DNA from: Acidobacteriota bacterium
Lineage (GTDB): Bacteria > Acidobacteriota > UBA6911
Assembly (NCBI GenBank): GCA_017860075.1
Contig: JAFNAH010000040.1
Location: 1 to 8,291, forward strand
Length of the DNA: 8,291 nt
Reading direction: 5' to 3'
Both the position numbers and the translations under genes were made by a program. Numbering within the stretch: position 1 is the stretch's first letter; each line of letters starts with the position of its first letter. Below are positions 3,548 to 4,984 of this stretch, piece by piece. The notes under the pieces were generated by a model that worked only from the letters and a program-made list of their open reading frames with translations, was not told the origin of the DNA and did no database searches.

Positions 3548-4984
3548 ATGGAACTGAGGAAGATTCACGACTACCTTTGGGAAATCCCGCAGACCGGCGG
3601 GATGCGGGTGCCGGGCAGAATCTATGCCACGAGGGACCTGCTTGCCGATCCGAAGAGCGACGAGAGCCTGCAGCAGGTCCGGAACGTGGCGCATCTGCCG
3701 GGCATTGTGAAGTACTCGATTGCCATGCCCGATATCCATTGGGGCTACGGGTTTCCGATCGGCGGCGTGGCCGCGATGCGCCTGGCCGACGGAGTGATCT
3801 CGCCGGGCGGCGTCGGCTACGATATCAATTGAGGGGTCCGGCTCATACGGACCGGTCTGGTCTGGAAAGCAGTTCAGGACAGGATCCCCGATATCGTGCG
3901 GTGCCTGTATCAGAAGATCCCTGCCGGTGTAGGCTCCTCCGGGGCCATCCCGAGACTCTCGTCGAAGGATGAGCGTCGAGTTCTTGAAACCGGCGCCCGG
4001 TGGGCGGTGCAGGAGGGCTACGGCCACCCGGAAGATCTTCATTACACCGAGGAGGGAGGGTGCCTCGCCGGCGCCGATGCGGACGAAGTGAGCGCGCGCG
4101 CCAGGGAACGGGGCTCTACCCAACTGGGGACCCTCGGCGGCGGGAATCACTTCGTGGAACTGGACGTCATTGACGAGGTTTTCCTGCCGGAGGTGGCTGC
4201 CGCGTTCGGCCTCGAAGCAGGAAACCTGGCAATCTTCATACACTCCGGCTCGCGCGGACTGGGTTACCAGGTGTGCGACGACTTCCTTGCAGTAATGGGC
4301 AAGGCGATGAGGAAGTACGATATCCAGCTTCCGGATCGCCAGCTTGCCTGCGCACCGCTCGATTCCGAAGAGGGGAGAAGGTACCTGGCCGCCATGGCCG
4401 GAGCCGCAAATTACGCCTGGGCCAACCGCCAGGTCATGATGGGACTGGCGGAACGGGCACTGTTGGAGACACTCGATATCTCCCCGCGGGAATTGGGATT
4501 CCGGCTGGTCTACGATGTGTGCCACAACATCGCCAAGTTCGAAGACCACTTGGTAGAGGGGCGTGAGCAGCGCCTCTGTGTCCACCGCAAGGGTGCGACG
4601 CGCGCATTCCCGCCGGGAGCAGCACAGGTTCCCGACGCTTACAGGGAGGTAGGGCAGCCGGTGCTTATCCCCGGGGACATGGGGACAGGTTCCTACGTCC
4701 TCGCAGGAACGCAACGCGCGATGGAGGAGAGCTTCGGCAGCAGCTGCCACGGGGCCGGCCGTGTCAAGAGCAGGACGCAAGCGTTGAAGTCAGCCCAGGG
4801 AAGAGACCTGTTTCTCGAGATGAAGGAGAGAGGCGTGACCCTGATGGCTTCAGGCCGCAGAACCGTGGCAGAAGAGATGCCGGAGGCATACAAGAACATC
4901 CACCTCGTGGTGGACGCCATCGAGCGCGCCGGTATCAGCAGGAAGGTGGCCCGTCTTCGTCCGGTCGGCGTCGTAAAGGGCTGA
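3548..4984 (+). CDS. rtcB: RNA-splicing ligase RtcB, selenocysteine-containing (TGA at codon 95 read as Sec)
   Basis: RtcB joins RNA 2',3'-cyclic-phosphate or 3'-phosphate ends to 5'-OH ends with GTP and Mn2+, in tRNA splicing or RNA repair. The frame from the ATG (GGGAGG 5 nt upstream) to the TGA at 4982-4984 has 478 codons, the family's full length, with one internal TGA (3830-3832). It falls in GGVGYDIN-TGA-GVRL, where the family has an invariant Cys in DINCGVR. Other active-site residues are present: Asp92, His201 (GGGNHF), His232 (IHSGSRGLG), His326 (CHNIAK) and the guanylated His401 (SSCHGAGR), plus HRKGATRAFPPG. Spacing matches P. horikoshii Asp95, Cys98, His203, His234, His329 and His404 within a constant offset of 2-3. 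A SECIS-like hairpin follows the TGA. Without Sec insertion, translation would stop at 94 residues. A recent nonsense mutation is the alternative; it is less likely given the exact position and intact remainder. Confidence 0.88.
3841..3870 (+). promoter_or_regulatory. Putative bacterial SECIS element (selenocysteine insertion hairpin)
   Basis: The upper stem CGGACC (3848-3853) pairs with GGTCTG (3859-3864) as six consecutive pairs, one of them G-U. It closes a 5-nt apical loop GGTCT (3854-3858). A short lower stem, GCT (3841-3843) with AGC (3868-3870), is separated by an internal loop. The apical loop begins 21 nt after the TGA, within the spacing accepted for bacterial SECIS elements, and starts with G. 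The loop sequence recalls the GGUCU of the E. coli fdhF SECIS, which SelB recognises. The hairpin lies inside the rtcB coding sequence, as expected in bacteria. Drawn by eye, with no folding energy computed. Confidence 0.75.

What the first reader, a model, noticed from the sequence alone, without database searches (positions are those of the whole stretch)
3830..3832. In-frame TGA replaces the invariant metal-binding cysteine of RtcB: a selenocysteine RNA ligase
The only interruption of a full-length rtcB is a TGA at the exact codon of the catalytic Cys in DINCGVR, which bridges the active-site metals in P. horikoshii RtcB (Cys98). All other active-site residues are intact with unchanged spacing, and a SECIS-like hairpin follows. 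A Cys-to-TGA exchange at a catalytic position is the classical signature of a selenoprotein. Sec as a ligand in the Mn2+ centre of an RNA ligase would be unusual. The RtcB active-site Cys is known to be sensitive to oxidation, so Sec could give a recoverable or faster enzyme; that role is inference. I cannot say whether Sec-RtcB has already been reported.
Basis: partly seen in the sequence, partly recalled or inferred. Interest (0 to 1): 0.95.

Follow-up and report, generated by a model that had tools for sequence, protein, structure and literature searches.

The report
A selenium-containing RNA ligase (Sec-RtcB)
In this bacterium and more than a hundred other bacterial genomes from several phyla, the gene for the RNA-joining enzyme RtcB has a TGA codon where its catalytic metal-binding cysteine should be, followed by sequence predicted to fold into a conserved hairpin, so the enzyme is predicted to be a selenium protein that would carry selenocysteine in its active site, which matters because a 2026 inventory of 119 prokaryotic selenoprotein families does not list it.

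Summary
TGA 3830-3832 is the only interruption of a 478-codon rtcB and aligns with Cys98 of P. horikoshii RtcB. In 44 of 44 TGA genomes searched no second rtcB covers that codon. Sequence after the TGA is under purifying selection. A hairpin fitting the published bacterial SECIS model follows: apical stem in 74 of 77 sequences, against a mean of 6 in synonymous redraws, 28 with the AGGTCT loop of E. coli fdhF. The window's genome has selA, selB and a selD with its own Sec-type TGA; selA is in 48 of 49 TGA handles. Weak points: selC was not found in this incomplete MAG or its congener, a rival hairpin folds better in the window's isolated RNA, and no bench evidence exists. A 2026 table of 119 families lacks RtcB. 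Best reading: a new selenoprotein family, with Sec predicted to bridge the two metal ions.

The parts
3548..4984 (+). rtcB, predicted Sec-containing 3'-phosphate RNA ligase, 478 residues, with its own TGA stop at 4982-4984
   Evidence: ORFs under table 11 and TGA=U; Pfam PF01139 1-426/426 at 572 bits; 1uc2/4dwq aligned over 3-478
3830..3832 (+). in-frame TGA, predicted Sec95, at the metal-bridging cysteine
   Evidence: aligned with Cys98 of P. horikoshii RtcB; TGA at this codon in G001, G002, G015 and 117 named loci
3848..3864 (+). predicted bacterial SECIS apical hairpin: 6-bp stem 3848-3853/3859-3864, loop GGTCT 3854-3858, 21 nt after the TGA
   Evidence: changes on both sides of pairs across loci, synonymous-redraw test, folding, published bSECIS model
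3841..3870 (+). possible lower SECIS stem, 3841-3843 pairing with 3868-3870
   Evidence: predicted fold when the RNA starts at 3841, -12.0 kcal/mol; conservation not tested
3038..3529 (+). archease ORF, RtcB activation factor, in apparent operon with rtcB (18 bases apart); ends at a TGA stop 3527-3529
   Evidence: ORF; Pfam PF01951, 113 bits; archease hit in 72 of 81 distinct Sec-RtcB genes with 600 or more bases upstream in hand
3821..3823 (+). codon of Asp92, metal ligand (Asp95 of P. horikoshii)
4148..4150 (+). codon of His201, metal ligand (His203 of P. horikoshii)
4241..4243 (+). codon of His232, metal ligand (His234 of P. horikoshii)
4523..4525 (+). codon of His326, metal ligand (His329 of P. 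horikoshii)
4748..4750 (+). codon of His401, the guanylylated histidine (His404 of P. horikoshii)
   Evidence: role of His404 from PMC10630183 passages

Best explanation
This is an rtcB gene whose TGA codon at the catalytic cysteine position is followed by a conserved, predicted SECIS-type hairpin and is predicted to be translated as selenocysteine, giving an RNA ligase whose Sec95 would take the place of the cysteine that bridges the two active-site metal ions. Shown by the calls: the exchange at the exact codon, its recurrence across phyla, the SECIS-type pairing signature, purifying selection on both sides of the TGA, the lack of a second rtcB covering the codon, and selA, selB and selD in the genome. 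Inferred: SelB with Sec-tRNA(Sec) reads the TGA with the help of the hairpin. Inferred: archease from the same operon helps guanylylate His401, and the enzyme then joins 3'-phosphate or 2',3'-cyclic phosphate RNA ends to 5'-OH ends as other RtcBs do. Inferred: the selenolate is a non-redox metal ligand that can be re-reduced after oxidation, so the ligase would survive oxidative insult that inactivates the Cys form; RNA ligation by RtcB in these bacteria would then depend on selenium.
For: Position: residue 95 aligns with Cys98 of P. horikoshii RtcB, other metal ligands kept. Copy number: in 44 of 44 TGA genomes no second rtcB covers this codon; likewise G000, G002 and G015, while G001 has a further short-type rtcB. 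Of 360 listed homologues 338 have Cys at this column and the other 22 are C-terminal pieces without it; nearest Cys homologue of the window 81% identical. Selection: window versus congener dN/dS 0.083 after and 0.040 before the TGA; 78 close Sec pairs, median 0.064 after it. SECIS: stem of 4 or more bp in 74 of 77 Sec sequences versus mean 6.0, maximum 12, in 200 synonymous redraws, and 2 of 17 Cys controls; changes on both sides such as CG/GC and AT/TA; AGGTCT loop in 28 as in E. coli fdhF. Machinery: selA, selB, selD with UxxK-type TGA; selA in 48 of 49 TGA handles; tRNA-Sec above 60 bits in 37 of 49. Archease and rtcB themselves end in TGA stops, so TGA is not globally reassigned. Tree of 92 Sec and 142 Cys proteins: 32 changes, at least 19 forced by starred branches.
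Against: selC was not found in the window's MAG (84.4% complete) nor in its congener G002, nor on the fetched selA, selB and selD contigs. selB is cut at a contig end. In the window's RNA folded from 3833 a rival hairpin 3835-3840/3848-3853 (-11.7 kcal/mol) beats the SECIS hairpin; the SECIS hairpin wins once 3833-3836 are left out. Rfam gave no SECIS match. selA is also common in non-TGA relatives, 23 of 29, so that is only a consistency check. L080 and L108 have an early stop (324 and 287 codons after the TGA). L143's genome lacks selA. The SECIS structures were read off the sequences on which they were tested, and related sequences inflate pair-change counts. No protein evidence exists here.
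Confidence: 0.95

Rival explanations
1. The TGA is a nonsense mutation and rtcB is a decaying pseudogene.
For: Without Sec decoding the ORF list gives two pieces; selC not found in the MAG; two of 117 relatives have a further early stop.
Against: Same codon in 117 loci; dN/dS 0.083 after the TGA; no other stop in 478 codons; no second copy covering the codon in 44 of 44 TGA genomes.
Confidence: 0.01
2. Two proteins are made, a 94-residue and a 362-residue piece (restart at GTG 3896), working as a split RtcB without residue 95.
For: Table 11 gives this split, and 22 of 360 listed homologues are 356-382 aa C-terminal pieces.
Against: The pieces depend on the gene caller's choice of start; the 21 codons between TGA and 3896 would be lost although all 133 rows read keep GVRL there. 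It explains neither the hairpin nor why the stop is TGA at the Cys codon.
Confidence: 0.02
3. TGA is read as another amino acid (Trp, Gly or Cys) by a reassigned code or a special tRNA.
For: selC not found in the two congeneric MAGs.
Against: Archease and rtcB both end at TGA stops; selA, selB and Sec-type selD present; SECIS-type hairpin conserved. Trp or Gly would replace a residue that is Cys in 338 of 338 homologues spanning the site.
Confidence: 0.02
4. Sec insertion is real but serves mainly as a selenium-dependent switch on RtcB level rather than a better catalyst.
For: Usually the only rtcB, so RtcB output would follow selenium supply; Sec and Cys forms interchange often.
Against: No regulatory data; the exchange is at the catalytic residue, which a simple switch would not need.
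Confidence: 0.15

Closest known systems
RtcB, 3'-phosphate RNA ligase (PF01139; P. horikoshii 1uc2/4dwq, human RTCB)
   Same: Full-length profile match, Asp and His metal ligands and the guanylylated His, archease gene usually next door
   Different: TGA (predicted Sec) instead of the conserved Cys, with a SECIS-type hairpin inside the coding sequence
Selenoenzymes with Sec as metal ligand: formate dehydrogenase, [NiFeSe] hydrogenase
   Same: Sec codon at a metal-ligand position followed by a SECIS; E. coli fdhF carries the AGGTCT loop found in 28 Sec-rtcB sequences. PMC13188914 section 7 says Sec coordinates Mo/W in formate dehydrogenase and is proposed to coordinate Ni in hydrogenase
   Different: Those are redox enzymes; RtcB is a GTP-dependent RNA ligase with a two-metal centre and no redox step
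Selenophosphate synthetase SelD-Sec of the same genome
   Same: In-frame TGA at a UxxK site
   Different: Part of the selenium pathway itself; a different protein family
Inventory of 119 prokaryotic selenoprotein families (PMC13188914, Table 1)
   Same: Same type of evidence: Cys/Sec pair plus bacterial SECIS
   Different: No RtcB or other RNA ligase is in the table

Membership tests
RtcB (PF01139) | Full-length profile match | tested here: met
   1-426 of 426 positions, 572 bits
RtcB (PF01139) | Metal ligands Asp, Cys and three His, plus the guanylylated His | tested here: inconclusive
   Asp and His present; the Cys codon is TGA, so met only if Sec counts in place of Cys
RtcB (PF01139) | GTP/Mn-dependent ligation of 3'-phosphate and 5'-OH RNA ends | not testable with these tools
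   needs purified protein
Selenoprotein | In-frame TGA aligned with a conserved Cys in homologues | tested here: met
Selenoprotein | TGA-containing homologues in other organisms | tested here: met
Selenoprotein | selA, selB, selD in the same genome | tested here: met
   (selB cut by a contig end)
Selenoprotein | tRNA-Sec (selC) in the same genome | tested here: inconclusive
   searched and not found in G000 or G002, both incomplete MAGs; above 60 bits in 37 of 49 TGA handles
Selenoprotein | Selenium in the purified protein | not testable with these tools
   75Se labelling or mass spectrometry needed
Bacterial SECIS model (PMC13188914 Fig. 2 legend) | Apical loop 3-9 nt and upper stem 4-16 bp | tested here: met
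   window: loop 5, stem 6
Bacterial SECIS model (PMC13188914 Fig. 2 legend) | G in the first two loop positions; spacing 16-37 nt | tested here: met
   window loop GGTCT, spacing 21 nt; G in 70 of 74 loops
Bacterial SECIS model (PMC13188914 Fig. 2 legend) | Minimum free energy at or below -7.5 kcal/mol | tested here: inconclusive
   -8.8 with neighbouring bases, -7.2 for the bare 17 bases, and a rival hairpin wins when folding starts at 3833

The most novel reading that the evidence does not exclude
Sec-RtcB is the first RNA-joining selenoenzyme: selenium sits as a non-redox bridging ligand in a two-metal RNA ligase, has been exchanged with cysteine many times across bacterial phyla, and makes RNA repair or splicing in these bacteria selenium-dependent and resistant to irreversible oxidation.
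Probability: 0.65. Interest if true: 0.9.

Novelty: new variant of a known kind. Interest (0 to 1): 0.85.

Why it matters
The review read here expects most uncharacterised selenoproteins to have redox functions (PMC13188914 section 7). A selenoprotein whose chemistry is RNA end-joining would extend selenium to RNA repair and would make a question directly testable: what the oxidation-sensitive Cys of RtcB is for and how cells protect it. Human RTCB relies on PYROXD1 to shield the same cysteine (PMC12263435, abstract and passages); Sec would be a different evolutionary answer. Practically, such genes probably sit in protein databases as truncated C-terminal pieces, so annotation hides the family.

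Tried and rejected
Pseudogene, code reassignment and split protein were considered and rejected (see rivals); a sequencing error cannot explain the same TGA in 117 loci. An Rfam scan of 3500-4100 gave two weak matches, neither a SECIS. tRNA-Sec in the window's genome was sought with RF01852, with a model built from 12 class tRNA-Sec genes, and with ARAGORN and that model on the selA, selB and selD contigs (of G002 only 20,000 of 22,787 bases of its selA contig); the best RF01852 hit in G000 is a tRNA-Ser. Looking for selA or selB beside tRNA-Sec in 12 relatives led nowhere. A first sorting of SECIS types failed and was redone. NCBIfam names RtcB families but gave no selenoprotein form of RtcB. 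An earlier count said 38 of 49 genomes with tRNA-Sec; recounting the rows gives 37 of 49. Structure prediction was not run because the alignment to solved RtcB sufficed.

Full report
What is in the sequence. The window is contig C279 of a metagenome-assembled genome (3.06 Mb, 632 contigs, 84.4% complete). G002, of the same genus, has the same kind of gene; its locus L018 shows the same coordinates and motif as named record L141, titled 'Acidobacteria bacterium isolate L.E.AB.17'. On the + strand lie an archease ORF (3038-3529) and, 18 bases later, rtcB (3548-4984). rtcB is open for 478 codons except for TGA at 3830-3832. That codon is residue 95 and aligns with Cys98 of P. horikoshii RtcB; the other metal ligands and the guanylylated histidine are present. 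Cys98 is linked to both Mn2+ ions in the P. horikoshii structures (passages of PMC10630183).

Recurrence and Sec/Cys pairing. Of 38 genomes of the class, four have an rtcB match with an inner TGA (G000, G001, G002, G015), all at this codon; the 13 other long-type genes in which the motif was read have TGC or TGT there. The motif is there by construction; what is not is that the loci are rtcB genes open on both sides: 95 of 117 reach a stop inside the fetched stretch, 93 of them 378-390 codons after the TGA, while L080 (324) and L108 (287) stop early; the other 22 run off the stretch. Record titles and NCBI ranks place 40 loci in Nitrospirota, 19 in Acidobacteriota and 17 in Thermodesulfobacteriota, with one each in Planctomycetota, Binatota and Methylomirabilota; 22 are ranked Myxococcota only because NCBI files 'Deltaproteobacteria bacterium' there, 4 Pseudomonadota, 12 without phylum (the remark on Deltaproteobacteria is my judgement). 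In the phylum 12 of 396 genomes match, with 0 in the reversed-pattern columns. Of 360 listed homologues from three protein searches (each capped at the best 120), 338 have Cys at the site and 22 are C-terminal pieces of 356-382 aa that lack it. The nearest Cys homologue is 81% identical to the window's protein; for a 'Deltaproteobacteria' query (L099) Cys homologues reach 84-87%.

It looks like the cell's working RtcB, not a relic. In 44 TGA genomes searched, all 44 have the TGA copy, and the extra rows in G399, G404, G405 and G414 are C-terminal remainders that do not cover the codon; of 22 non-TGA genomes of the phylum 16 have rtcB, none with an inner stop. G000, G002 and G015 also have only the TGA copy, but G001 has, besides it, matches to a further rtcB of the short type. 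Window versus congener: dN/dS 0.040 before and 0.083 after the TGA (dS above 1, so rough); over 78 pairs (100 close pairs, 22 dropped for dS outside 0.1-2; pairs not independent) the median after the TGA is 0.064, and before it 0.067 over 73 pairs. Archease was detected in 99 of 108 Sec rows with at least 600 bases upstream, or 72 of 81 after merging identical proteins; in L064, L067, L092 and L102 it lies after rtcB.

SECIS. Two hairpin types follow the TGA. In 77 distinct sequences of the first type the apical stem (two registers, loop of 5 or 6) has at least 4 bp in 74, against a mean of 6.0 and maximum of 12 when codons are redrawn synonymously 200 times; 2 of 17 Cys genes have it. In the 18 sequences of the window's register one pair is CG in 8, GC in 8, TG in 1 and AT in 1; related sequences make these fewer independent events. 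The loop is AGGTCT in 28 and GGTCT in 7, the window included; E. coli fdhF has AGGTCT. In 41 sequences of a Nitrospirota type (sorted by motif, not taxonomy; L160 is titled Methylomirabilota) a longer hairpin has at least 11 of 13 pairs in 36, against a mean of 2.7. Both structures were read off the sequences they were tested on, which favours them; the gap to the redraws is larger than I would expect from that alone (judgement). Predicted folding is also stronger than in Cys genes (118 Sec, 17 Cys; 42-nt stretch, mean z against synonymous redraws -0.92 versus -0.08, p 0.0019). For the window the hairpin 3848-3864 meets the loop, stem, G and spacing rules of the published model (passages and Fig. 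2 legend of PMC13188914). Its energy is -8.8 kcal/mol with neighbours and -7.2 alone. Folded from 3833, a rival hairpin (3835-3840 with 3848-3853, -11.7) wins; leaving out 3833-3836 restores the SECIS hairpin. A ribosome with the TGA in its A site would cover those bases; that is inference. Across the 77 sequences the minimum-energy fold contains the apical stem in 58 when folded from the base after the TGA and in 72 when folded from nine bases further on.

Machinery. The genome has selA (550 bits), selB (336 bits, cut at a contig end) and selD with an inner TGA in a U-A-S-K site, the UxxK motif listed for SelD (Table 1). selC was not found in this MAG or in G002, nor on the fetched selA, selB and selD contigs. 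A missing selC is not rare in such MAGs: best match above 60 bits in 29 of 38 class genomes (my count) and in 37 of 49 TGA handles (three non-TGA genomes in that call, G003, G011 and G037, had none). PMC13188914 notes that selC can overlap selB in some lineages, and part of selB is missing here, but whether that applies is untested. selA is over cut-off in 48 of 49 TGA handles (37 of the 39 sampled loci were held, plus 12 G genomes; G422 and G230 look like one genome) against 23 of 29 non-TGA relatives, so this is consistent rather than decisive.

Evolution. On a tree of 92 Sec and 142 Cys proteins with the residue masked, Sec and Cys change at least 32 times by parsimony, at least 19 of them forced by starred branches (FastTree; some long branches flagged); direction is not inferred. 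The window and L018 sit in a starred set with 12 Cys proteins. The Cys gene L047 (G019, same class) keeps a 7-bp hairpin in the SECIS register with loop AGTTT, which looks like a fossil SECIS after a Sec-to-Cys change; redraws of the 17 Cys genes gave 5 or more bp in 0.1 genes on average.

What it does. By descent it is a 3'-phosphate RNA ligase that works with archease (start of abstract of PMC3973293 in a search listing). Sec would occupy the bridging ligand site. The homologous cysteine is oxidation-prone: oxidised in aerobically purified P. horikoshii RtcB (PMC10630183 passages) and shielded by PYROXD1 in human RTCB (PMC12263435 abstract and passages). Oxidised selenols are in general more easily re-reduced than thiols (recalled chemistry), so I expect protection or recovery to be the benefit; no call tests it.

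Novelty. Searches pairing RtcB or its other names (UPF0027, COG1690, RctB, tRNA-splicing ligase, RNA-splicing ligase) with selenocysteine or selenoprotein showed no paper reporting a Sec-RtcB: all 6 hits were listed, but searches listed only 30 of 312, 25 of 99 and 15 of 543 papers. The library holds open-licence papers only. A May 2026 review tabulates 119 families without RtcB (section 7, parts 1 and 2 of 3 read); the deep-Sep paper has no 'ligase' in its main text (term search and passages). Two cited sources (Deng 2026; Haft and Tolstoy 2025) were not held, and supplements were not available, so prior mention there cannot be excluded.

Noticed in passing
L047 (G019), motif codon and following 36 bases: A Cys-RtcB (TGC) of the same class keeps a 7-bp hairpin in the SECIS position with loop AGTTT: a likely fossil SECIS after Sec-to-Cys change.
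   Followed up: partly
Nitrospirota-type loci, e.g. L061, L095, bases +15 to +54 after TGA: Their SECIS candidate is a different, longer hairpin without the GGTCT loop, suggesting a distinct bacterial SECIS class.
   Followed up: partly
G000 and G002 whole genomes: selA and TGA-rtcB are present in both, but no tRNA-Sec was found in either member of this genus.
   Followed up: partly
window 4989-5070: A 28-nt inverted repeat (86% complementary, 26 nt apart) with a nested perfect 12-nt palindrome lies right after rtcB; terminator or small repeat element not decided.
   Followed up: no
window 5163-6782: The chaperonin gene groEL ends in PPPMPEDYE rather than the Gly-Met tail I recall as usual, and I noted no groES beside it, though I did not search for one.
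   Followed up: no
P0020, P0266 and 20 other listed homologues: C-terminal RtcB pieces of 356-382 aa, up to 97% identical to the Sec queries, probably Sec-RtcB genes truncated by annotation.
   Followed up: partly
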